Shown piece after piece: positions 12,655 to 42,475 of a stretch of DNA of 64,000 nt. A model generated the notes under the pieces. It made no database searches. It was not told the origin of the DNA and saw only the letters and a program-made list of their open reading frames with translations. The stretch covers positions 1,119,501 to 1,183,500 of the forward strand of contig JAJGOT010000137.1 in assembly GCA_022457155.1 (NCBI GenBank), written 5' to 3'. Origin of the DNA: Cladopsammia gracilis (Eukaryota > Cnidaria > Anthozoa > Scleractinia > Dendrophylliidae). The number at the start of each line of letters is the position of its first letter. The stretch's first letter is position 1. The position numbers were made by a program, and so were the translations under genes.

Positions 12655-12950
12655 CGAAGACCCAAAAACGAAGACCGAAGACCGAAGACCCCCTGGTCTA
12701 AAACGAAGACCCCCTGGTCTAAAACGAAGACCCCCTGGTCTAAAACGAAGACCCCCTGGTCTAAAACGAAGACCCCCTGGTCTAAAACGAAGACCCCCTG
12801 GTCTAAAACGAAGACCCCCTGGTCTAAAACGAAGACCCCCTGGTCTAAAACGAAGACCCCCTGGTCTAAAACGAAGACCCCCTGGTCTAAAACGAAGACC
12901 CCCTGGTCTAAAACGAAGACCCCTTGGTCTAAAACGAAGACCTCCTGAAA
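12655..12950 (+). repeat. 21-bp tandem array, left arm (12 full units)
   Basis: The unit is GGTCTAAAACGAAGACCCCC plus T. Because 21 is a multiple of three, it gives spurious open frames on both strands. GGTCT and AGACC within each unit are complementary, so every unit can form a short hairpin. Confidence 0.9.
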
Positions 12951-13559
12951 TTATTAACGTAGTCATATTGTAAGATCACCTTGTCGCTAGTGGCCTAGTC
13001 TACGCGTTGCGTGACACCCCAAAAATCGCTGCATTTTAAGTGTTGTTTGTGTGAAAGCTCTTATATAATTATTTAAAAGGGAAATCCAAGGAGAAATGAT
13101 AGAAAAATTCAAGAAATTGAAGCAGGGATGATTAGGCATGATGCATGGATCGATGATTGTTGATTGATTGGAGTCCAATTCGTCGAGACAAAAGCCGTCA
13201 AATTTCGTCAAATTAGGTTTCAGAAAAACCCAAAATAACCAGATGTCCCGCGCATTTCGACCTAAGACCTCTGAAAATGTAAGACCTCTGAAATAATTAA
13301 CGTAGTCATATTGTTAAGATCACCTTGTCGCTAGTGGCCAGATGATGACAGGGATGTGACAAGCAACTGCATTTAAAATAGTCTCCTAGTCTACGCGTTG
13401 CGTGACACCCCAAAAATCGCTGCATTTTAAGTGTTGATTGTATGAAAGCTCTTATATAATTATTCAAAAGGGAACTCCAAGGAGAAATGATAGAAAAATT
13501 CAAGAAATTGAAGCAGGCGATTCAATCGATCCTACCGATCCTTGGCAAGAAAAGAACAG

Positions 13560-15810: not shown

Positions 15811-16310
15811 AGGGATTTGCATTTGAAATGACTTCCGCTCAGGTCACAGGTCAAACAACACTTAAAATGCTGTAGCCTACGCAGCCGATTTTTGGGATGT
15901 CACGCAACGCGTAGACTAGCCGAGACTATTAATGCAGTTGCTTGTCAAGGTGATCTTAACAATATGACTACGTTAATTATTTCAGAGGTCTTACATTTTC
16001 AGAGGTCTTAGGTCGAAATGCGCGGGACATCTGGTTATTTTGGGTTTTTCTGAAACCTAATTTGACGAAATTTGACGGCTTTTGTACTCCAATCAATCAA
16101 CAATCATCGATCCATGCATCATGCCTAATCATCCCTGCTTCAATTTCTTGAATTTTTCTATCATTTCTCCTTGGATTTCCCTTTTAAATAATTATATAAG
16201 AGCTTTCACACAAACAACACTTAAAATGCAGCGATTTTTGGGGTGTCACGCAACGCGTAGACTAGGCCACTAGCGACAAGGTGATCTTACAATATGACTA
16301 CGTTAATAAT

Positions 16311-16485
16311 TTCAGGAGGTCTTCGTTTTAGACCAAGGGGTCTTCGTTTTAGACCAGGGGGTCTTCGTTTTAGACCAGGGGGTCTTCGTTTTAGACCAGG
16401 GGGTCTTCGTTTTAGACCAGGGGGTCTTCGTTTTAGACCAGGGGGTCTTCGGTCTTCGGTCTTCGTTTTTGGGTCTTCGTTTTAG
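16311..16485 (-). repeat. 21-bp tandem array, right arm (6 full units)
   Basis: This is the same 21-bp unit as the left arm in reverse orientation, but six copies instead of twelve. It shows unequal expansion of the two arms. Confidence 0.9.
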
Positions 16486-16495
16486 ACACACCCCT

Positions 16496-23916: not shown

Positions 23917-24339
23917 ATTTAATTCCAGCCTATGTCCAGGCTAGGGGCGAGAAAGCACTTGCAGCTTACCACAGAGCTCTAGAAACAGGTGGCAGTACAT
24001 ACGATAAACGTGTCAAGGTTTTAGTCGTTGGTCAGGACCGTGTTGGCAAAACGAGCCTCTGTAAATCCCTGAGAGGTGAAGCATTTAATGAACATGAACC
24101 CAGTACTGACGGAGTGCACATGATCTCCCCCGTCAAGAATGCTGGGACAGAGGCCTGGAGAAATCCACCTTCTCTTGAACACACAACTGTATTTGATTAC
24201 AAGATTGCTGTAGAGGTCACTAGAGAGTTATTAAGCACATCTGCAGAACAACCAACAAGGAAAAAATCGAGTGAAAGTCCCTTTAAAGATGCAACTGGGG
24301 ACAAAATTCAAGAGCTCATTCATATGACTACGGAAAATG
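23917..24339 (+). CDS. ROCO GTPase: Roc domain start with P-loop
   Basis: Acceptor TTCTTTTTTTAG and donor AATG|GTAAGC give 423 bp, phase 1 to phase 1. The translation opens DLIPAYVQARGEKALAAYH, then the strand VKVLVVGQDRVGKTSLCKS. This contains the GTP-binding P-loop GQDRVGKT (24030-24053) and is followed by LRGEAFNEHEPSTDGVHM, which fits the switch I region of Roc GTPases. The rest of the exon is charged and poorly conserved in look. The frame runs a few codons past the donor into the intron. Roc-COR proteins (for example LRRK and MFHAS1 types) are cytoplasmic GTPases, several with innate-immune roles. Confidence 0.9.
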
Positions 24340-26459: not shown

Positions 26460-27873
26460 AAGAGCAAGATCGCGAAAATCAAAAGAAACCACATTACGTT
26501 GCACAAGAGAAGGTAGATTCCTTGCCAAAAGAATGTGAGTTACATGTAGTAGAACAGCTGAAGAAAAACGAAGTTGACAAAGATGACCACATTTGGCCAG
26601 TCATTTGGGACTTTGCAGGACAAGACATTTATCGCGCCATACATCCTATCTTTATGTCTTCAGAGGACATTTTTCTGCTCGTTTCTGATCTTACAATAGA
26701 ACTAAGTGCATTAGCAGAGTGTCGAGTGAATTTGGGTGACAAAGAGTACATTGTAAGAGCCTGTGATAGTGAGGACACCAATTTCGATCACATTTTGAGG
26801 TGGCTAGACTTGATTCACTCTTTAAAGAAAGGTGATCACAATGAGATGTCAGCGAGTGGATTTTTGCACCCACCTGTCATATTGGTGGGTACACATGCGG
26901 ACCGCGTAGACGATCCAACCAAAGAAATTAATATACTGGGAAAACGTTGCTTAAAAGACCATGAGGTGTTTGCCAAGCACATCACAAAGTGTTTAGCTAT
27001 CAATAACAGACATGCTGGTAAGTCAGAAGACCAGGAGAAAATTATTGCGTTGCGAGAAGAAATTTTGAAGCTAGCCGATAAAATGCCACATACAAAAAAG
27101 AAGATCCCTTTGCAATGGCATCGTGTTGAGAAAGAAATTAGCAAGCCCAAATGGCAAATAAAGAGGTACCTCAGGAAGAAAACGTTTCAAGAAGACATCG
27201 TTTCACCATACTGTACATTTGATAACGAGTACGACTTTGATGAGTTTGTATACTTTCTTCATGGCCGCGGCACAATAGTTTTCCATGAAGATACTAGCAA
27301 CAAAGATAGTCTGGTTATCTTGGATCCCCAGTGGCTGATCAATGTCCTCTGCGAAATTATCAAAGTGAAATCGCATGATGACGAACCATGGTCCCTAACG
27401 CAAGATCGTGAACAATTACAAGAAAGAGGAATTCTTAGCAGGCAGTTGATTGATCATGCCTGTCGAAATCAGAAAATAGATGTCATTAAAGACTCCTTGA
27501 TTTCGCTCATGGAGAAATTCAACCTTATTTGCAAGTGGCCGGCAAAAGAAAATGAAGATTCACTAATCCTTGTTCCATGTATGCTGACACTTGAAGGCAA
27601 GGGACAAATTGCAATGGATGATATCTGCCCGGCACCAGTGTACCTCACTTTCAAGGGAACTAATTACGTTCCAGGTGGGCTTTTCTGCCGACTGGTTGTG
27701 CTCTTCGGAAAATGGCTCTCAGATCCACAATACACACATGAGTACGAACTGCACGCCAACGAAGCCCTTTTTGCTCTTGAGGAAGACCATTCCCTTCATT
27801 TGGTGTGCTACAAGAAAGTTATTAAGCTGCACATTTCATCACAAATTGACGAGCATTATAAGAATGTTTTGAG
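26460..27873 (+). CDS. ROCO GTPase: Roc G3/G4 and COR domain
   Basis: Acceptor TTTTTTCACAG and donor GAG|GTAAGC bound 1,414 bp (phase 1 in, phase 2 out; 470 codons). Near residue 50 is VIWDFAGQDIYRAIHPIFMS, the DxxGQ (G3) motif with the Roc-typical tail. ILVGTHADRVDD near residue 140 is the G4 position (THAD in place of NKxD, usual for Roc). From about residue 220 come COR features: HRVEKEISK, YFLHGRGTIVFHED and VILDPQWLINVLCEI. The end (VYLTFKG, GLFCRLVVLFGKWL, LHLVCYKKVIKLHI) fits the second half of COR and the segment after it. No stop or frameshift occurs, arguing that the exon is under selection. Confidence 0.93.
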
Positions 27874-28298: not shown

Positions 28299-28548
28299 CC
28301 ATTTAAAGGAATTTTTGGTAACACTTAAAAAGGAGTGTCACTGGCTGTGTTCAGTGTCCGAGGAGTTGTGTGCTCGATGTACAATGTGTTTAGGAACAAA
28401 CCCGGAGCCTTGCGCCCTTCACGGGGAAAGACCTTGTAGGCACCATGACTGTGGCCACTACATTCCATTGAAGGCAAGAGTTCTTTGCTGTAAGCCAGGT
28501 TGCCCCCTCCCACAGGAGCCACTCCGACCTTGGATCACGGCTTACAAA
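28299..28548 (+). CDS. ROCO gene: Cys/His-rich segment
   Basis: Acceptor CAATTTGTAG and donor AAA|GTATGT give 250 bp, phase 2 in and phase 0 out. It continues the previous exon as SHLKEFLVTLKKECHWLCSV and then CARCTMCLG, HGERPCRHHDCGHYIPL and VLCCKPGCPLP. Eleven cysteines and several histidines with CxxC spacing suggest a metal-binding fold after COR. I have no firm family name for it. Confidence 0.85.
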
Positions 28549-28887: not shown

Positions 28888-28942
28888 GAGATGAATCTTT
28901 TCACTTCACGTGACACAGCACAAAGTCATCCAGGGCAATCTG
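28888..28942 (+). CDS. ROCO gene, short polar exon
   Basis: Acceptor GGTTCCCTTGCAG and donor TCTG|GTGAGA bound 55 bp, phase 0 in and phase 1 out. It encodes EMNLFTSRDTAQSHPGQS. It joins the Cys-rich exon to the linker-exon series and is followed by the 6.2-kb intron with the two tandem arrays. Confidence 0.7.
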
Positions 28943-29051
28943 GTGAGACATTGGAAATTGCTCTCTTATTTGCTGAATAATGTGGGTCTTTAAAAGGTGG
29001 CTTGTTTACGATAAACATACATGTCACCCTTGCAGTACTAAAGTCTGTCGT

Positions 29052-29218
29052 TAAAATCCTTCCGAGTATAGCCATACAAATATATAATGAAAACCGTCTT
29101 CAACAGTACTAGTTCATGGTGCTGATGGGTTGATAGGTAAAATCCTACTGAGTATAGCCATACAAATGAAAACCATCTTCAACAGTACTAGTTCATGGTG
29201 CTGATGGGTTGATTGGTA
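29052..29218 (+). repeat. Tandem duplication, about 80-86 bp x 2
   Basis: GAGTATAGCCATACAAAT...CTTCAACAGTACTAGTTCAT...GATGGGTTGAT occurs twice in succession in the intron, the first copy with a short insertion (ATATA). Confidence 0.8.
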
Positions 29219-29317
29219 AAATTAACTTACGTCTCGGTGAAATGAAGAAACATTCCTAACATTGACGAGCGTTATGAATGCAATTACAATTTTAAAAGCC
29301 TGAAAAAAAATCATCCA

Positions 29318-29395
29318 AGGTCTTGGACAGGATTTGAACTCGTGCCTTCTCGTTTTCTAGTTTTCTAGTACGACGCTCTCACTGACAGCTTCATA
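29318..29395 (-). repeat. tRNA-like sequence, possible SINE head
   Basis: On the minus strand, GTCAGTGAGAGCGTCGTA resembles an A box and GAGTTCAAATCCTGTCC, about 35 bp later, resembles a tRNA B box. The two are spaced as in a tRNA gene, but a clean cloverleaf with acceptor stem was not found. A tRNA-derived SINE or decayed tRNA is the likely reading. Confidence 0.4.
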
Positions 29396-29844
29396 CATAA
29401 TTTTCAGGCTTTTCGCAATCGCTGCGAGAATCGTTTCTTGATTCCAATCCTTTTCCTCGCAGTTCATATATGATCCCTTTCCTATGTTCATTGTCATCTT
29501 TGGGCCTCGACGGACTACATGTAGACCAGTTGTTATTGATAACTATTTAGTTGTCGATAAGAAAAAAGCCCGTGTGTGAAGCAAGGTAGCTTGTACTCGT
29601 GGAGTCTTTATCCCATTTTAGTATTGATTCCCGAGTGTTTTGAGTGCTTCTAAAAAGTAACATTACACTACATTCAGTAGCCGACACTTGAAACCACGAT
29701 CGCTAACTGAAATGCCAAGTTTAGTACATAAACCCAAACTTCCCGGAACAAAACTCCCACTGCAATAAGCGGCGAACACAATATCAAACGGTCCTATCCA
29801 TCCATAAACGTCTTGTGTTGTCTTGCAAACTTGTGCGCTGTAAT

Positions 29845-31335
29845 TCTTTTCCGCCATCTTGAAATCAAAAGCGAGATCAGGAGGTCACGTGTCAACCAAT
29901 CAGACCAGTGAAACTAAAATATGCGTGCATCAGTTTGACGCCATCTTGAAATCAAGAGCGAGATCAGGAGATCACGTGTCAACCAATCAGACCAGTGAAA
30001 CTAAAGTATGCGTGCATCAGTTTGCCGCCATCTTGAAATCAAGAGCGAGATCACCAGGTCACGTGTCAACCAATCAGACCAGTGAAACTAAAATATGCGT
30101 GCATCAGTTTGCCGCCATCTTGAAATCAAGAGCGAGATCACGAGATCACGTGTCAACCAATCAGACCAGTAAAACTAAAATGTGCGTGCATCAGTTTACC
30201 GCCATCTTGAAATCAAGAGCGAGATCACGAGATCACGTGTCAACCAATCAGACCAGTGAAACTAAAATATGCTTGCATCAGTTTGCCGCCATCTTGAAAT
30301 CAAGAGCGAGATCAGGAGATCACGTGTCAACCAATCAGACCAGTGAAACTAAAATATGCGTGCATCAGTTTGCCGCCATCTTGAAATCAAGAGCGAGATC
30401 ACGAGATCGTGTCAACCAATCAGACCAGTGAAACTAAAATATGCGTGCATCAGTTTGCCGCCATCTTGAAATCAAGAGCGAGATCAGGAGATCACGTGTC
30501 AACCAATCAGACCAGTGAAACTAAAATATGCGTGCATTAGTTTACCGCCATCTTGAAATCAAGAGCGAGGTCACGAGATCACATGTCAACCAATCAGACC
30601 AGTGAAACTAAAATATGCGTGCATCAGTTTACCGCCATCTTGAAATCAAGAGCGAGATCAGGAGATCACGTGTCAACCAATCAGACCAGTGAAACTAAAA
30701 TATGCGTGCATCAGTTTGCCGCCATCTTGAAATCAAGAGCGAGATCACCAGGTCACGTGTCAACCAATCAGACCAGTGAAACTAAAATATGCGTGCATCA
30801 GTTTGCCGCCATCTTGAAATCAAGAGCGAGATCAGGAGATCACGTGTCAAGCAATCAGACCAGTAAAACTAAAATGTGCGTGCATCAGTTTACCGCCATC
30901 TTGAAATCAAGAGCGAGATCAGGAGATCACGTGTCAACCAATCAGACCAGTGAAACTAAAATATGCGTGCATCAGTTTGCCGCCATCTTGAAATCAAGAG
31001 CGAGATCAGGAGATCACGTGTCAACCAATCAGACCAGTGAAACTAAAATATGCGTGCATCAGTTTGCCGCCATCTTGAAATCAAGAGCGAGATCACGAGA
31101 TCACGTGTCAACCAATCAGACCAGTGAAACTAAAATATGCGTGCATCAGTTTGCCGCCATCTTGAAATCAAGAGCGAGATCAGGAGATCACGTGTCAACC
31201 AATCAGACCAGTGAAACTAAAATATGCGTGCATCAGTTTGCCGCCATCTTGAAATCAAGAGCGAGATCAGGAGATCACGTGTCAACCAATCAGATCAGTG
31301 AAACTCAAATAATTTTATGCGTGCATCAGTTTGCA
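29845..31335 (+). repeat. Intronic tandem array, 17 x 87 bp, with clustered factor-site motifs
   Basis: Seventeen head-to-tail units of 87 bp, very similar to one another. Most contain GCCGCCATCTTG (the YY1 core in reverse), ATCACGTGTC (a CACGTG E-box) and AACCAATCAG (a CCAAT box). One unit near 30403 has lost two bases and its E-box; another near 30574 reads CATGTC. Because 87 is a multiple of three and the unit lacks stops in one frame, long frames of repeating 29-residue modules appear; these are almost certainly not protein genes. The array lies in the intron after exon 28888-28942. Confidence 0.9.
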
Positions 31336-31399
31336 TGCGCAGATGAAAACTCAGCCGAATCTACATCTCATCGGCTTACGACCCACGAGTAATGAGTTA

Positions 31400-32280
31400 T
31401 CAAGAACCAAACATTTTCCATTTAAAACAGAAAACTACTTTAGTTGTCGATAACAAACGCGGCACTTTTATCATCGGCAACTCGTTTTTCCTAGTCTGTA
31501 AGACAGTTGTCGACAACTTAGTTATATAGATGTCATTAAACTAGCGTGAGGTTCGTATTGGGAAAATATTGGCAAAAAAAAACTCGACCAATATTTCCCA
31601 ATACAAACCGAACAAGCTAGGTCAATAAAGTTTTTATTATAAAGTTTTTTATTATAATGGCGTTTTTGAAAATTTGCCGATAAATTAATGCAACCATTCT
31701 TGGCTATCGCGCGCCAAAGCTAAGCAGATTCTTGCATTTTTCAAGCCACTTAGCAAAAAGCTTAATCAAAATTGTCCGCCAACATGAAACATGAGGGAAA
31801 ATGTTTCTACTTAATATAAAACTTTTCATTTGTTCATTGTTTCATAAAAGGAATTCGGCGAAATGAGTTCGTGAGCGGTCCATCTTAGTGGTCCGTATTG
31901 CAAAATTCAGCGGTAGTGTAGCAGCTCTCAGAAACCTCTATTTTCATTGGCCTTGTAAAACACAGCTTCTATTGTTTTTAGGGCTAGGGTCCATTGTTGT
32001 GTTGTTTGTTCTATTGTTCTCTCGAAGGGTATCGAACCAATGGTGTGGGACCTTACGACAGCTGCTACATAAATTCAGACCGCTCACTGAGGGAACCAAT
32101 CAGAATGCTCCTTTTCATCGTGGACCAGTTTGCCATATAATAAATTGCCACACGTGTAGCTGCGCGGCTAGCACTGGAAATGAAGTTGACAAGCCCAGTA
32201 AATGTTAGCTACAAACCTCTCACATAAAAAAATAATTATCGACAATTTTGCCCCTCTATTGTGTCAAAGCTGATCGAACA
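31400..32280. other. Spacer between the two arrays
   Basis: Contains a hairpin (GTATTGGGAAAATATTGG with its complement, about 31555-31612). It also has isolated copies of the GTTGTCGATAAC / GTTGTCGACAAC motif (31440, 31505) that is amplified in the next array. Confidence 0.6.
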
Positions 32281-32287
32281 CTAATAG

Positions 32288-34985
32288 GGTCCACTCATCT
32301 TAGTTGTCGAATACACATAGTTGTCGATAACTATCTCTCCAGTCTGTTGAGGTCCTATGGTCCACTCATCTTAGTTGTTGAATACACATAGTTGTCGATA
32401 ACTATCTCTCCAGTCTGTTGAGGTCCTATGGTGCACTCATCTTAGTTGTCGAATACACATAGTTGTCGATAACTATCTCTCTAGTCTGTTGAGGTCCTAT
32501 GGTCCACTCATCTTAGTTGTCGAATACACATAGTTGTCGATAACTATCTCTCCAGTCTGTTGAGGTCCTATGGTCCACTCATCTTAGTTGTTGAATACAC
32601 ATAGTTGTCGATAACTATCTCTCCAGTCTGTTGAGGTCCTATGGTGCACTCATCTTAGTTGTCGAATACACATAGTTGTCGATAACTATCTCTCCAGTCT
32701 GTTGAGGTCCTATGGTCCACTCATCTTAGTTGTCGAATACATATAGTTGTCGATAACTATCTCTCCAGTCTGTTGAGGCCCTATGGTCCACTCATCTTAG
32801 TTGTCGAATACACGTAGTTGTCGATAACTATCTCTCTAGTCTGTTGAGGTCCTATGGTGCACTCATCTTAGTTGTCGAATACACATAGTTGTCGATAACT
32901 ATCTCTCCAGTCTGTTGAGGTCCTATGGTGCACTCATCTTAGTTGTTGAATACACATAGTTGTCGATAACTATCTCTCTAGTCTGTTGAAGTCCTATGGT
33001 GCACTCATCTTAGTTGTTAAATACACATAGTTGTCGATAACTATCTCTCTAGTCTGTTGAGGTCCTATGGTCCACTCATCTTAGTTGTCGAATACACATA
33101 GTTGTCGATAACTATCTCTCTAGTCTGTTGAGGTCCTATATGGTGCACTCATCTTAGTTGTCGAATACACATAGTTGTTGATAACTATCTCTCTAGTCTG
33201 TTGAGGTCCTATGGTGCACTCATCTTAGTTGTCGAATACACATAGTTGTCGATAACTATCTCTCTAGTCTGTTGAGGTCCTATGGTCCACTCATCTTAGT
33301 TGTCGAATACACATAGTTGTCGATAACTATCTCTCCAGTCTGTTGAGGTCCTATGGTCCACTCATCTTAATTGTCGAATACACATAGTTGTCGATAACTA
33401 TCTCTCTAGTCTGTTGAGGCCCTATGGTCCACTCATCTTAGTTGTCGAATACACATAGTTGTCGATAACTATCTCTCTAGTCTGTTGAGGTCCTATGGTG
33501 CACTCATCTTAGTTGTCGAATACACATAGTTGTCGATAACTATCTCTCTAGTCTGTTGAGGCCCTATGGTCCACTCATCTTAGTTGTCGAATACACATAG
33601 TTGTCAATAACTATCTCTCTAGTCTGTTGAGGCCCTATGGTGCACTCATCTTAGTTGTCGAATACACATAGTTGTCGATAACTATCTCTCTAGTCTGTTG
33701 AGGCCCTATGGTGCACTCATCTTAGTTGTCGAATACACATAGTTGTCGATAACTATCTCTCTAGTCTGTTGAGGTCCTATGGTCCACTCATCTTAGTTGT
33801 CGAATACACATAGTTGTCGATAACTATCTCTCCAGTCTGTTGAGGTCCTATGGTCCACTCATCTTAGTTGTTGAATACACATAGTTGTCGATAACTATCT
33901 CTCCAGTCTGTTGAGGTCCTATGGTGCACTCATCTTAGTTGTCGAATACACATAGTTGTCGATAACTATCTCTCTAGTCTGTTGAGGTCCTATGGTCCAC
34001 TCATCTTAGTTGTCGAATACACATAGTTGTCGATAACTATCTCTCCAGTCTGTTGAGGTCCTATGGTCCACTCATCTTAGTTGTTGAATACACATAGTTG
34101 TCGATAACTATCTCTCCAGTCTGTTGAGGTCCTATGGTGCACTCATCTTAGTTGTCGAATACACATAGTTGTCGATAACTATCTCTCCAGTCTGTTGAGG
34201 TCCTATGGTCCACTCATCTTAGTTGTCGAATACATATAGTTGTCGATAACTATCTCTCCAGTCTGTTGAGGCCCTATGGTCCACTCATCTTAGTTGTCGA
34301 ATACACGTAGTTGTCGATAACTATCTCTCTAGTCTGTTGAGGTCCTATGGTGCACTCATCTTAGTTGTCGAATACACATAGTTGTCGATAACTATCTCTC
34401 CAGTCTGTTGAGGTCCTATGGTCCACTCATCTTAGCTGTCGAATACACATAGTTGTCGATAACTATCTCTCCAGTCTGTTGAGGCCCTATGGTCCACTCA
34501 TCTTAGTTGTCGAATACACATAGTTGTCGATAACTATCTCTCCAGTCTGTTGAGGCCCTATGGTGCACTCATCTTAGTTGTCGAATACACATAGTTGTCG
34601 ATAACTATCTCTCCAGTCTGTTGAGGTCCTATGGTGCACTCATCTTAGTTGTCGAATACACATAGTTGTCGATAACTATCTCTCTAGTCTGTTGAGGTCC
34701 TATGGTGCACTCATCTTAGTTGTGGAATACACATAGTTGTCGATAACTATCTCTCTAGTCTGTTGAGGCCCTATGGTGCACTCATCTTAGTTGTGGAATA
34801 CACATAGTTGTCGATAACTATCTCTCTAGTCTGTTGAGGTCCTATGGTGCACTCATCTTAGTTGTGGAATACACATAGTTGTCGATAACTATCTCTCTAG
34901 TCTGTTGAGGCCCTATGGTGCACTCATCTTAGTTGTCGAATACACATAGTTGTCGATAACTATCTCTCTAGTCTGTTGAGGTCCT
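32288..34985 (+). repeat. Intronic 71-bp satellite array, about 38 units
   Basis: The unit runs GGTCCACTCATCTTAGTTGT, CGAATACACATAGTTGTCGA, TAACTATCTCTCCAGTCTGT, TGAGGTCCTAT. Each unit carries the near-palindrome TAGTTGTCGATAACTA. Variant positions (CCAGTC/CTAGTC, GTCC/GTGC, TTGTCG/TTGTTG) repeat in the same order about 1,493 bp apart, giving a higher-order repeat of roughly 21 units. Stops occur in all frames. Confidence 0.92.
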
Positions 34986-35165
34986 TACTTATTGGTATTG
35001 GTTGTATCCTGATGACAAACGTTGCCATACACAAACATGGCATGTCAATTTGGTTGTAATCGGTAGTGGTGGATGGACAGCACGTCCATTTTTCTTCTGC
35101 CATCTCATGTGCAATTATAACCTGTCATCGATAACTATTGTATAATTATTTTTTTTTTATCAAAG

Positions 35166-35249
35166 GTATTGAAAAACCCACAAAACGCAAATCTCCTTCG
35201 GAAGATGCTGCAACTGTGCAAACGACATGTGATATCCAGCTGACTCATA
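35166..35249 (+). CDS. ROCO gene, linker exon module 1
   Basis: Acceptor TTTTTTTATCAAAG and donor CATA|GTAAGT enclose 84 bp, phase 1 at both ends. It encodes GIEKPTKRKSPSEDAATVQ and then TTCDIQLTH: a basic patch and a short conserved tail. It is paralogous to the exons at 38655 (very close) and 37873 (more distant). It is probably a flexible linker, possibly with a nuclear-localisation-like KRK patch (inference). Confidence 0.75.
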
Positions 35250-35785
35250 GTAAGTATCAATTAAGCCAATTAGCTGATTATAACGTAAAGAGATTGACTT
35301 GACTCACTCGTGATGTCCAGCTGACTCATAGTAAGTACCAAGCCAATTAGTTGATTATAACGTAAAGAGATTGACTTGACTCGCTCGTGATGTCCAGCTG
35401 ACTCATAGTAAGTATCAAGCACCAATTAGCTGATTATAACGTAAAGAGATTGACTTGACTCACTCGTGATGTCCAGCTGACTCATAGTAAGTATCAAGCA
35501 CCAATTAGCTGATTATAACGTAAAGAGGTTGACTTGACTCGCTCGTGATGTCCAGCTGACTCATAGTAAGTATCAAGCACCAATTAGCTGATTATAACGT
35601 AAAGAGATTGACTTGACTCGCTCGTGATGTCCAGCTGACTCATAGTAAGTATCAAGCACCAATTAGCTGATTATAACGTAAAGAGATTGACTTGACTCGC
35701 TCGTGATGTGCGGCTGACTCATAGTAAGTATCAAGCACCAATTAGCTGATTATAACGTAAAGTGATTGACTTGACTAGCTCGCTG
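35231..35785 (+). repeat. Minisatellite amplifying an exon end and its splice donor
   Basis: About seven units of 76-81 bp begin GATGTCCAGCTGACTCATAG, which is the 3' end of the linker exon plus the GT of the donor. Then come TAAGTATCAAGCACCAATTA and GCTGATTATAACGTAAAGAG. Each unit therefore repeats CATA|GTAAGT. The duplicated copy at 38720 has a single unit. Confidence 0.9.
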
Positions 35786-38568: not shown

Positions 38569-39680
38569 GGATGGACAGTACGTATACTATTTCATGTGCA
38601 ATTATAACCTGTCATTGATAAGTATTGTATAATTCTTTTGTTTTTTAATCAAAGGTGTAAAAATACCCACAAAACGCAAATTTCCTTCGGAAGATGCTGC
38701 AACTGTGCAGACTACATGTGATGTCCAGCTGACTCATAGTAAGTATCAAGCACCAATTATGCAATTAACTGATTATAACATAAAAAGATTGACTTGACTC
38801 GCTGACGCCGGCTTTTCTTTTCGCGCTATCGGCCCATCCTGAAAGCCTCACAGTCTATTGGTTTGCCAATGAATCCAAAAGTCCATACCGTGTTTATCAC
38901 AGAAAGAAAGTTTGTCTGTACTTGTACAGTTATAGTACGAAAGCGAGTGCAGTATCGCCTTCGGCCGAGTTGGCTAAAATCAGGAGATATTACGCAAGCT
39001 TGAGCACTATAACTGTTTTATAATTCAACGCATTGACAACAAATCACAGTTTCGAGAAAAAAATCAATGAGATATGCAACCTTTTATCACTCAGTAAAAA
39101 GACTTACTACAATATGTTAGCTCGCGTTATTCCTTACACAGCAAGTAGCGAATGAAAATTTTGGCACGCTATAATTAATTTAGTTTTATACCGAGAGCTT
39201 TTGTCTTAGTAAAGAACGGGACAGAGTAGTGACTACACGAATAAAATCACAGTAACTGATGGCAGAGAATCCCTTGGTGACAAGTGTTCCGTGTCTTAAA
39301 AAGTTCAATTCAGGATCAAATCAAATTGAACAAACACACGGCTACCTGAAGAGAGCGGCGAAAAGTCTGAAAGAACTGCAGTGAGGACAGTAAGTCTTTA
39401 CAAAAATTCCCAGCGTAAGGACTCAATAAACGTTTAAAACATCGTTACCGCGTACCTGTAGTTTATCTGGCTTTTAGTCCCTTTTATCAGCACCAAATTT
39501 TCAAGCATTGAGGTACGAGCTGCATCGATTGCTGTTGTTTACGAACTTGCTCGTTTGAGCTACCATAGCCGTAATACCGAGATCGTCAGCAAAGAGCTCA
39601 CAAAGTTCCCTCATGTTTATCCGCAGTTCAAACATATGATTTTCAAATATTAACAATCAAGTATCAAGTCTATATCATAT
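38569..39680 (+). repeat. Segmental duplication, copy B (exon plus intron)
   Basis: Shorter paralogue of 35069-36850. It carries one unit of the donor minisatellite and lacks the TTA-flanked MITE, so it preserves the pre-insertion state. Confidence 0.85.
38655..38738 (+). CDS. ROCO gene, linker exon module 3
   Basis: Acceptor TTTTTTTAATCAAAG and donor CATA|GTAAGT enclose 84 bp, phase 1 to phase 1. It encodes GVKIPTKRKFPSEDAATVQ and TTCDVQLTH, differing from module 1 at only a few residues. That suggests recent duplication with the frame kept intact. Confidence 0.75.
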
Positions 39681-40086: not shown

Positions 40087-40772
40087 GAAGAATTCAAGAA
40101 GGAAATCGGAACCATAAGAAAGCAGGCAACATGTCAGGCAGAACAGAAATTACTAGGAGCGCTAATCAAATTCCACTATCGCAACATTGATTCAAATCAA
40201 AGAAGAAGAGCGGGTAGGCTACTAAGCCAAACGAAACTAATATGTCAATCAGCCCAAGAACAAGGCACTAAGCCACTCGTAAATGTACAAGAGAGAGTCC
40301 AGCTCATACAGAAACAAACTGTGGTGAAAAACATGTCAGAACTTGAGAATGCCAGTAATAAGCACGGTTGAATCTCAACCTCGTGTGCTCCCTGAGTCTT
40401 GATATTAAAGAAATCAAACGGAAGGTCTCAGATACATAAAAATATCTGAATAAGAAACATATTGACCGCAAAAGACAAGCAAAACGAAATAAAGCCGATA
40501 ATGCTGAGAAGAAATACACGCACTTTAAATCTTGTCACCCACCTGGAGTCAACAAAGGTTTCTTCAAAGCGGAGAGGCCCTTAGACTCCTCAGAATTGAA
40601 CGAACTTTTCAAAGGAAACTCTCAAGGAAAACATCAATAAGTTCAAATAAACTACGGCTAAGAGGCTACCCTAACAATATCATCGAGAAGGTGCTCTCAG
40701 AAGTAATATTCTCTGACAAAATTGAAAGTCAGCTCTCAAAGACAAAACAAAAGCTCGCAAAGAAATATTAGT
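40087..40772 (+). pseudogene. Penelope-like polyprotein remnant, RT core missing
   Basis: An open stretch from 40087 reads FKKEIGTIRKQA, LLGALIKFHYRNID and LVNVQERVQLIQKQT, resembling the N-terminal part of Penelope-like proteins. After stops, 40530-40770 gives CHPPGVNKGFFK (frameshifted), EALRLLR and LRLRGYPNNIIEKVLSEV, the conserved block after the RT catalytic core. The core itself is deleted. Strand is opposite to the neighbouring element. Confidence 0.65.
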
Positions 40773-42475
40773 CTGTTGTTTGTGATCGTCCGGGTGAGTG
40801 TAGTTCTGAAAAGAACTGTTGTTGTTGACAATGACTGACGTTTCGACAACCTGAGCGGAAGTCATCTTCAGAGTCATGTGAATTGTGAATGGTCAGTTGA
40901 TGTTATATACGTCTGGTTATAACTGTCATTGGTCAGTTTAGCCGTGATGTTATTGGCTGTAGAGACTCAAGTCAGTGATAGGTGCGTTTCGATCCGTGTA
41001 TTGTTAGTGTAATTTCTGTAGTCGTATTGTTAGTCAAATTTGTCAGTGAGTTCAGTCTATTGTTCGTCTGTTTTGTTGACAAGTCGTTTGTAAGCCGCAG
41101 GAAGCTGTTGGCATCTGTTCAGTGGTGTCTGTTCTAAGTTAGTAAACCAACTTTCTAAAGTGAGCCGTTTGTAGTAGTCCGTACTGTAGGTAACGCATTC
41201 GGCAGAGTCCCAGTCAATTCTGTGATTCGTGCGTAAATGGTGTTCAGCAATGTGATTGTTGATGTCACCATTTTTTGTCGCCCGTTTGTGTTCAGTCAGT
41301 CGTATGTTCAGATTCCTGCCAGTCTCACCGATGTAAGAGGCCTGGCAGTCGCAGCATTTGATCTTGTATACTGCTCCTTGTCTGTCGTTAGGTTCGTCCT
41401 TGTCTTTAACGTTTGTGAGAAGCTGTCGTAAAGTAGTAATGGGTTTGTGAGCGACACGGATGTTGTAAGGTTGTAAGATCCGTGCAATAGTCTCAGAAGT
41501 GCCCTTGATGTAGGGTATTGTCGCTGTGGTGACAGGTTTTGCGTTAGTTGTGTCAGTTTCGTTGTTTTTGTAAACATTGCGTTTAACAAAGTCTCGGTTG
41601 TAGTTGTTCTTACTGAAAACGTTGTCAAGGTACTTGGTTTCGTCGGTTAGGCTGTCAGGTGAATCGCAAACTAGTTGCGCTCGTCTTGTCAAAGTTCGTA
41701 TGGTCGTCGCTTTGTGAGATGTAGGGTTGTACGATGACTGGTCTAGTAGTCTGTCGGTATGAGTCGGTTTCCTGTAGACAGTAGTCTGTAGTTTGTTGTC
41801 ATTTCGGCTTACTAGACAGTCTAGAAAAGGAATCGTACCATTTTCTTCAACCTCTCTAGTGAACTGTATGTCAGCGTTTTGTCTGTTGAGGTGTTCGTGA
41901 AAGGTGTCAATCTCGTCTTTGTGTACAGCAGTGAAGGTGTCGTCCACGTAGCGTAACCAAAGTGGTACTGTGGTGACATCAACAATCACATTGCTGAACA
42001 CCATTTACGCACGAATCACAGAATTGACTGGGACTCTGCCGAATGCGTTACCTACAGTACGGACTACTACAAACGGCTCACTTTAGAAAGTTGGTTTACT
42101 AACTTAGAACAGACACCACTAACAGATGCCAACAGCTACCTGCGGCTTACAAACGACTTGTCAACAAAACAGACGAACAATAGACTGAACTCACTGACAA
42201 ATTTGACTAACAATACGACTACAGAAATTACACTAACAATACACGGATCGAAACGCACCTATCACTGACTTGAGTCTCTACAGCCAATAACATCACGGCT
42301 AAACTGACCAATGACAGTTATAACCAGACGTATATAACATCAACTGACCATTCACAATTCACATGACTCTGAAGATGACTTCCGCTCAGGTTGTCGAAAC
42401 GTCAGTCATTGTCAACAACAACAGTTCTTTTCAGAACTACACTCACCCGGACGATCACAAACAACAGACTACTGA
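40773..42475 (-). mobile_element. Penelope-like element with coding sequence inside inverted terminal arms
   Basis: Sequence 40773-41270 is repeated in complement at about 41978-42472. Both arms start next to GTTTGTGATCGTCCGGGTGA and contain TCTGAAGATGACTTCCGCTC plus GTCGAAACGTCAGTC. The left arm carries the 3' end of the endonuclease frame, so the terminal repeat overlaps the gene. The element lacks everything upstream of the RT YVDD box. Such inverted partial copies are typical products of Penelope insertion. Confidence 0.85.
41057..42004 (-). CDS. Penelope-like RT end plus GIY-YIG endonuclease (5'-truncated)
   Basis: The 315-codon uninterrupted frame begins in the opposite terminal arm (about ten residues from antisense repeat). 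It reads LWLRYVDDTFTAVH, the catalytic motif C of Penelope RT, then the thumb-like FTREVEENGTIPFLDCLVSR and TVYRKPTHTDR. C-terminally there is VYKIKCCDCQASYIGETGR, the CxC plus GIY-YIG endonuclease core, with LTEHKRA and HLRTNH downstream. Frame integrity suggests recent insertion. RT motifs before YVDD are absent, so it cannot encode a complete RT. Confidence 0.88.
   Translation of the reverse strand: MVFSNVIVDVTTVPLWLRYVDDTFTAVHKDEIDTFHEHLNRQNADIQFTREVEENGTIPFLDCLVSRNDNKLQTTVYRKPTHTDRLLDQSSYNPTSHKATTIRTLTRRAQLVCDSPDSLTDETKYLDNVFSKNNYNRDFVKRNVYKNNETDTTNAKPVTTATIPYIKGTSETIARILQPYNIRVAHKPITTLRQLLTNVKDKDEPNDRQGAVYKIKCCDCQASYIGETGRNLNIRLTEHKRATKNGDINNHIAEHHLRTNHRIDWDSAECVTYSTDYYKRLTLESWFTNLEQTPLNRCQQLPAAYKRLVNKTDEQ

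What the first reader, a model, noticed from the sequence alone, without database searches (positions are those of the whole stretch)
29845..31335. Seventeen-unit intronic array repeating YY1-, E-box- and CCAAT-like sites
Each 87-bp unit has GCCGCCATCTTG, a CACGTG core and AACCAATCAG at fixed spacing. That combination is typical of strong CpG-type promoters, here repeated 17 times inside a GTPase gene intron. It may be a satellite seeded by a promoter-like monomer, and could act as an enhancer or factor sponge. Site presence is seen; function is inference.
Basis: partly seen in the sequence, partly recalled or inferred. Interest (0 to 1): 0.75.

Follow-up and report, generated by a model that had tools for sequence, protein, structure and literature searches.

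The report
Scattered-repeat fragment amplified into a minisatellite
In what looks like a coral genome, an 87-base piece of a scattered repeat was copied 17 times in a row inside what is most likely an intron; each copy carries sequences resembling switch sites of active gene promoters, but nothing shows that they are kept by selection, so it is most likely an ordinary minisatellite.

Summary
Window 29850-31332 is a tandem array of 17 units of 87 bp (one of 85, the last with a 6-bp insertion) with sites at fixed spacing: CGCCATCTTG in 17/17 units, the full GCCGCCATCTTG in 11/17, CACGTG in 15/17, AACCAATCAG in 16/17, all three in 14/17. The YY1-like and CCAAT-like matches beat shuffled units; the E-box less clearly.

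Origin: the sequence left of the array belongs to a dispersed repeat family, 48 related ORFs on contigs of 45 distinct lengths. Eight run from that flank into the monomer as far as the E-box or beyond. In two of them the sequence beyond the monomer is not another monomer. So a single-monomer ancestor exists, inside a dispersed, apparently non-coding repeat. One copy expanded here, with a later block duplication of eight units.

Site columns vary as much as other columns (Fisher p = 1.0), and there is no CpG-island contrast. Most likely a repeat-derived minisatellite with inherited promoter-like sites and no selected function; enhancer or sponge action is untested. The host gene is a coral-type Roc-COR GTPase; the array is most likely intronic, but the downstream exon is only predicted. 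New member of a known kind.

The parts
29850..31332 (.). 87-bp tandem array, 17 units (unit 7 is 85 bp; unit 17, 31240-31332, carries a 6-bp insertion); TRF gives 29847-31311
29850..29861 (-). YY1-like site of the outermost (left) unit; on the minus strand CAAGATGGCGG; repeated in each unit
29886..29891 (.). CACGTG of unit 1 (15 of 17 units have it exactly)
29894..29903 (+). AACCAATCAG (CCAAT/NF-Y-like) of unit 1 (16 of 17 units)
29556..29849 (-). left flank: rest of the dispersed-repeat copy; a 64-aa minus-strand ORF opens at the ATG of the outermost unit (29857) into it, but relatives show a DNA repeat read in several frames rather than a protein family
31333..31344 (-). right edge: the 9-12 bases next to the array resemble P0046 and P0042; beyond them the right flank matches neither, so the copy seems cut or diverged here
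   Evidence: weak
28299..28548 (+). host-gene exon (Roc-COR GTPase), homologue-confirmed, ends at AAA|gtatgt
28888..28942 (+). predicted small exon (phase 0 to 1), not homologue-confirmed
35166..35249 (+). predicted exon (phase 1 to 1) closing the 6223-bp intron 28943-35165; a second, open copy of it starts at 38655

Best explanation
The array is a local minisatellite. A copy of a dispersed, apparently non-coding repeat (probably a non-autonomous mobile element) lies on the minus strand in what is most likely an intron of a coral Roc-COR GTPase gene. An 87-bp segment of that copy was tandemly amplified, later including a duplication of a block of eight units, probably by unequal exchange or slippage. 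The YY1-like, E-box and CCAAT-like sites came with the monomer. Shown: the array, its left flank as part of a dispersed family, the monomer joined to that flank in relatives, two relatives with a single monomer, the block duplication, no excess conservation of sites. Inferred: mobile-element nature, mutational mechanism, absence of a selected function. The sites may still bind factors passively.
For: The left flank matches 48 ORFs with E<=1, 43 of them <=1e-3 (two of these were in the query), on contigs with 45 distinct lengths. All 48 match the window, and at E<=0.01 only at 29556-31288. Eight of 48 run without a break from the left flank to the E-box or beyond (P0007, P0014, P0018, P0020, P0028, P0034, P0042, P0046). 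P0042 and P0046 continue past the monomer with 47 and about 22 residues that are not another monomer and that resemble each other (E 5.7e-5). Relatives read the same DNA in different frames (...GFKCRLLNVV versus ...GFKVFQVLATECS), and P0018 matches the window in two frames, as expected of a non-coding repeat. Units i and i+8 are alike: for the seven pairs among units 2-16 the mean is 1.43 differences; 2 of 20000 permutations reach it, 39 of 20000 when the best of lags 2-10 may win. End units are the most diverged: mean differences 4.75 (unit 1) and 9.9 (unit 17, its 6-bp insertion included) against 3.1 among inner units. Variable columns: 6 of 28 in sites, 12 of 59 elsewhere, Fisher p=1.0.
Against: The relatives are ORF translations from contigs without species names; their DNA was not seen, so the monomer is inferred through peptides. 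Six of the eight informative relatives begin inside the monomer and cannot exclude further monomers upstream; the single-monomer state rests on two. Their upstream sequence does not match the window's right flank beyond 9-12 bases, so the repeat copy is followed on one side only. P0042 residues 16-27 resemble a stretch of the monomer weakly (E 0.39 in a 261-base search); I take this as chance. No element ends, terminal repeats, target-site duplication or transposase were established; the 28-bp direct repeat at 29538-29564 and 31430-31457 is inconclusive. Homogenised arrays are a weak test of selection, so p=1.0 does not exclude function. The YY1-like core is compatible with 9 of 12 relatives that span it without starting there (my reading); that could be family age or constraint.
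Confidence: 0.74

Rival explanations
1. The array is an active intronic enhancer or factor sponge: clustered YY1, NF-Y and bHLH sites recruit factors and open chromatin, or titrate them.
For: Near-consensus YY1 and NF-Y matches beyond shuffles; 14 of 17 units keep all three sites. Precedents read in passages only: ERV-9/LTR12 U3 with 5-17 tandem repeats of about 41 nt carrying NF-Y sites and acting as enhancer (PMC11853044); the Peg3 first-intron YY1 cluster, whose sites appear to act as activator of two genes (PMC5526879).
Against: Sites not better kept than spacers; no CpG-island contrast; motif set chosen after the fact; no chromatin or expression data.
Confidence: 0.15
2. The array is the tandemly repeated promoter and start codon of a nested gene on the minus strand (CCAAT, E-box, then CAAGATGGCGG with an ATG opening a 64-aa ORF at 29857).
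For: Order on the minus strand and the ORF at the array edge, with two relatives at E<=5.2e-8. YY1 sites act just downstream of start sites in human cells (PMC11269187, passages), and a YY1/Kozak-like motif sits about 10 bp after sponge start sites (PMC4773876, passages).
Against: Relatives are short, frame-shifted and differently terminated; 11 of the 15 relatives listed carry about 11-15 residues after the ATGGCGG position that the window lacks (my reading); the similarity continues past the window ORF's stop codon (P0002, P0008). The CCAAT-to-YY1 distance of 43 bp is shorter than in a usual promoter (recalled).
Confidence: 0.05
3. The 87-bp unit is a 29-codon protein repeat (plus-strand frames run through the array).
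For: 87 is a multiple of three; stop-to-stop frames of 195 and 283 aa cross the array.
Against: The 2-bp deletion in unit 7 breaks the frame into two; the host-gene model has an intron there.
Confidence: 0.01

Closest known systems
Minisatellites and satellite-like arrays arising inside mobile elements (review PMC9659126; Helentron Cg_HINE arrays of oyster, PMC7492417; passages read)
   Same: A short internal segment of a dispersed element stands as a tandem array with similar units; such elements occur in or near genes.
   Different: In Cg_HINE the tandem repeats travel with the element; here the two relatives that can tell have one monomer. Monomer 87 bp instead of predominantly 140-180 bp. 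Element class not established here.
ERV-9 / LTR12 U3 enhancer repeats (PMC11853044, passages)
   Same: Tandem units (5-17) each carrying a CCAAT site, inside a dispersed repeat.
   Different: No LTR or retroviral relation shown; unit 87 bp rather than about 41; partner sites YY1-like and E-box-like rather than GATA/MZF1; activity not shown.
Peg3 imprinting control region, YY1 cluster in first intron (PMC6193732 and PMC5526879, passages)
   Same: Many YY1-like sites in one orientation in an intron with tandem-repeat structure.
   Different: Peg3 features are maintained among mammals and the sites were mutated in mice; here no conservation or function is shown.

Membership tests
Minisatellite | tandem array of units of roughly 10-100 bp (recalled definition) | tested here: met
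   87 bp x 17
Minisatellite derived from a dispersed repeat | monomer joined to the array's flank in dispersed relatives | tested here: met
   8 of 48 relatives run from left flank into the monomer to the E-box or beyond; peptide level only
Minisatellite derived from a dispersed repeat | relatives with a single monomer (ancestral state) | tested here: met
   P0042 and P0046 only; the other six begin inside the monomer and cannot tell
Non-autonomous mobile element | defined ends, target-site duplication or link to an autonomous partner | tested here: inconclusive
   28-bp direct repeat and short palindromes, no clear terminal inverted repeats; partner not searched
Helentron/HINE element with central repeats | central tandem repeats carried by dispersed copies between conserved flanks | tested here: inconclusive
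   two relatives have one monomer, six cannot tell
CpG-island promoter | raised GC and CpG o/e against surroundings | tested here: not met
   GC 0.44 and CpG o/e 0.97 against 0.39 and 0.89
CpG-island promoter | transcription start and open chromatin | not testable with these tools
   needs ATAC-seq or capped-RNA data
LTR12-like tandem enhancer | repeated CCAAT sites bound by NF-Y with enhancer activity | not testable with these tools
   site presence only
Conserved YY1 cluster (Peg3-like) | sites conserved beyond surrounding sequence | tested here: not met
   within-array test only, Fisher p=1.0; cross-species test not possible

The most novel reading that the evidence does not exclude
A dispersed coral repeat family carries a compact YY1/E-box/CCAAT promoter module genome-wide, and here one copy has been multiplied into a 17-unit enhancer-like array acting on a Roc-COR GTPase gene: an invertebrate counterpart of LTR12 tandem enhancers made from a different element and factor set.
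Probability: 0.1. Interest if true: 0.6.

Novelty: new member of a known kind. Interest (0 to 1): 0.3.

Why it matters
It shows an ordered path from a dispersed repeat with one promoter-like monomer to a tandem array, so whether multiplying such sites creates regulatory activity could be tested by comparing single-monomer copies with the 17-unit copy. If inert, it warns that strong motif combinations in arrays can be plain inheritance from a repeat.

Tried and rejected
Nested minus-strand gene with a repeated promoter: attractive after (the ATG of the outermost unit opens a 64-aa ORF; two relatives at E 2.6e-8 and 5.2e-8), set aside when the family proved to be dispersed and frame-shifted.

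Protein repeat: rejected, frame broken by the 85-bp unit.

Other copies elsewhere: no megablast match of the array in phages; no hit of a monomer pattern or of a flank pattern in viral contigs, exact patterns only; the search for related loci gave 40 pattern stretches there, none confirmed. One exact 19-mer in a bacterial assembly (L001) has no further similarity; by my own arithmetic about two such matches are expected by chance in that collection. In the window no other copy of the monomer beyond short fragments. No Rfam family at gathering score and no tRNA in the window.

Host gene: P0049 and others end in a Death domain (PF00531 listed for P0049), but a tblastn (E<=1) of P0049 and of the C-terminal ends of three more homologues found no such exon in the window, only one hit of 25% identity at 31550-31633 with E 0.65, taken as chance. 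The gene model after 28548 is therefore a prediction.

Mended on checking: I first read P0042 and P0046 as matching the right flank; one search shows that only 9-12 bases beside the array match, so the claim now is that their sequence beyond the monomer is not another monomer. The single-monomer state is shown by two relatives, not eight. Confidence was lowered from 0.78 to 0.74, and the two main rivals raised by 0.01 each, for that reason; the Helentron test was changed to inconclusive. The unit alignment misplaced the tail of unit 17, so its site count (p=0.14) is replaced; the lag test used units 2-16 only and is unaffected. Motif strings are recalled; tiles starting between about 29700 and 31400 were dropped there.

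Literature: six searches of one open-access library listed no paper on this repeat by title or abstract start; that is no proof that it is unpublished.

Full report
What is there. Tandem Repeats Finder gives one array at 29847-31311, period 87, 16.9 copies, 96% matches. Cutting at CATCTTGAAATCA gives 17 units, all 16 steps 87 bp except one of 85; the last unit carries a 6-bp insertion and ends at 31332. The YY1-like 12-mer is exact in 11 of 17 units and its CGCCATCTTG core in 17 of 17; CACGTG is in 15 of 17, AACCAATCAG in 16 of 17, all three (10-mer core) in 14 of 17. The sites are at unit positions 1-12, 37-42 and 45-54. On the minus strand the order is CCAAT-type site, E-box, then CAAGATGGCGGC.

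Chance. With recalled consensus strings, 0 of 3000 dinucleotide shuffles of the unit reach its YY1 score, 14 its NF-Y score, 79 its E-box score. The YY1 and NF-Y matches are therefore more than composition; the E-box, with imperfect flanks and 14 further CACGTG in the window, is not remarkable by itself. These are one monomer's matches copied 17 times, not 17 independent events, and the motifs were picked after the sequence was seen.

Where it lies. Pfam finds Roc and COR-A in the frames that hold exons 23917-24339 and 26460-27873 (exon borders). A spliced model of five exons is open throughout and has 251 relatives at E<=1e-20 among the 7994 candidates scored; the six named ones in the best 120 are from Oculina, Montipora, Acropora and Stylophora, stony corals, so the window is probably from a coral. 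P0049 (60% identity, 94% of the query covered) matches the exon to exactly 28548 at its residue 776 of 903 and so continues beyond. The predicted next exons 28888-28942 and 35166-35249 keep phase and have GT/AG borders, which puts the array in a 6223-bp intron together with a second array of 71 bp x 38. The Death domain that follows in P0049 was not found in the window, so the acceptor side is a prediction.

Origin. The outermost unit's ATG opens a 64-aa minus-strand ORF into the left flank. A search gave two relatives, and a search with their alignment gave 48 at E<=1, 43 at <=1e-3, the first two being in the query. Their listed contigs have 45 distinct lengths. The sequences share the flank but in shifted frames and with different ends, the mark of a dispersed non-coding repeat. 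All 48 match the window, at E<=0.01 only within 29556-31288. Eight of 48 run unbroken from the left flank into the monomer as far as the E-box or beyond. Six of these begin inside the monomer and cannot say what lies upstream. The other two, P0042 and P0046, continue with 47 and about 22 residues that are not another monomer and resemble each other (E 5.7e-5); a weak likeness of P0042 residues 16-27 to the monomer (E 0.39 against 261 bases) is taken as chance. The window's right flank matches that upstream part in only 9-12 bases beside the array, so the window copy seems cut or diverged there. Thus copies with one monomer exist, and the window's copy is best read as the expanded one.

Sites in relatives. 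Fifteen of 48 show the YY1 position or the part above it. Of 12 that do not begin at that ATG, 9 have peptides compatible with AAGATGGCGG and 3 do not (P0007, P0018, P0034); P0019, P0035 and P0038 begin there and were left out as biased. Codons are not seen, so 'compatible' is all that can be said. E-box and CCAAT cannot be judged fairly, since an open frame selects against some bases: P0034 is compatible with CACGTG, P0007 is not, and P0042 and P0046 seem to have lost the CCAAT core (my reading).

History of the array. Inner units are 96.4% identical. Units 3/11 and 6/14 are identical; 4/12, 5/13 and 7/15 differ by two columns, 8/16 by one, 2/10 by three; 9/17 differ by twelve, unit 17 being the odd end unit. 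The lag-8 mean is reached by 2 of 20000 permutations of units 2-16, or 39 of 20000 if any lag from 2 to 10 may win. This points to a block duplication of about 690 bp. The two end units are the most diverged, as expected for arrays homogenised by unequal exchange (recalled model).

Function. Within the array 6 of 28 site columns and 12 of 59 other columns vary (p=1.0; inner 15 units: 6 of 28 and 9 of 59, p=0.55). Hence no sign that sites are kept. GC and CpG o/e are close to the surroundings. I commit to: no selected function, a passive intronic minisatellite, sites inherited from the repeat. Precedents that such arrays can work as enhancers exist (LTR12, Peg3; passages), so the enhancer reading stays open at about 0.15. 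In human cells YY1 sites act just downstream of the start site and NF-Y upstream (passages), which would favour minus-strand initiation if anything started here; that is inference.

Verdict. It is a new member of a known kind, repeat-derived minisatellites (passages).

Noticed in passing
window 35229-35782 and 38655-38803: A 79-bp x 7 array repeats the exon end with its donor splice site (CTCATA|gtaagt). A diverged duplicate of the region at 38589-39589 has the same exon open and matches one unit only at 38718-38803, so the donor-site array probably arose after the duplication.
   Followed up: partly
window 32288-34985; also 29551, 31444, 31507, 32236, 35128: A second array in the same predicted intron, 71 bp x 38, carries the near-palindrome AGTTGTCGATAACT; related short palindromes also flank the 87-bp array. 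Relation unknown.
   Followed up: partly
window 12759-13423 and 15881-16487: Inverted duplicate of about 670 bp at 90% identity; 21-bp minisatellites of 12.6 and 6.6 copies lie at 12683-12947 and 16313-16451, overlapping the arms.
   Followed up: no
window 40769-41270 and 41971-42471: Inverted repeat of 502 bp at 99.6% identity overlapping an ORF with a weak GIY-YIG match (E 0.0028, below the Pfam cut-off); perhaps a recent retroelement piece.
   Followed up: no
window 29052-29222: Tandem duplication of about 90 bp at 88% identity left of the repeat copy.
   Followed up: no
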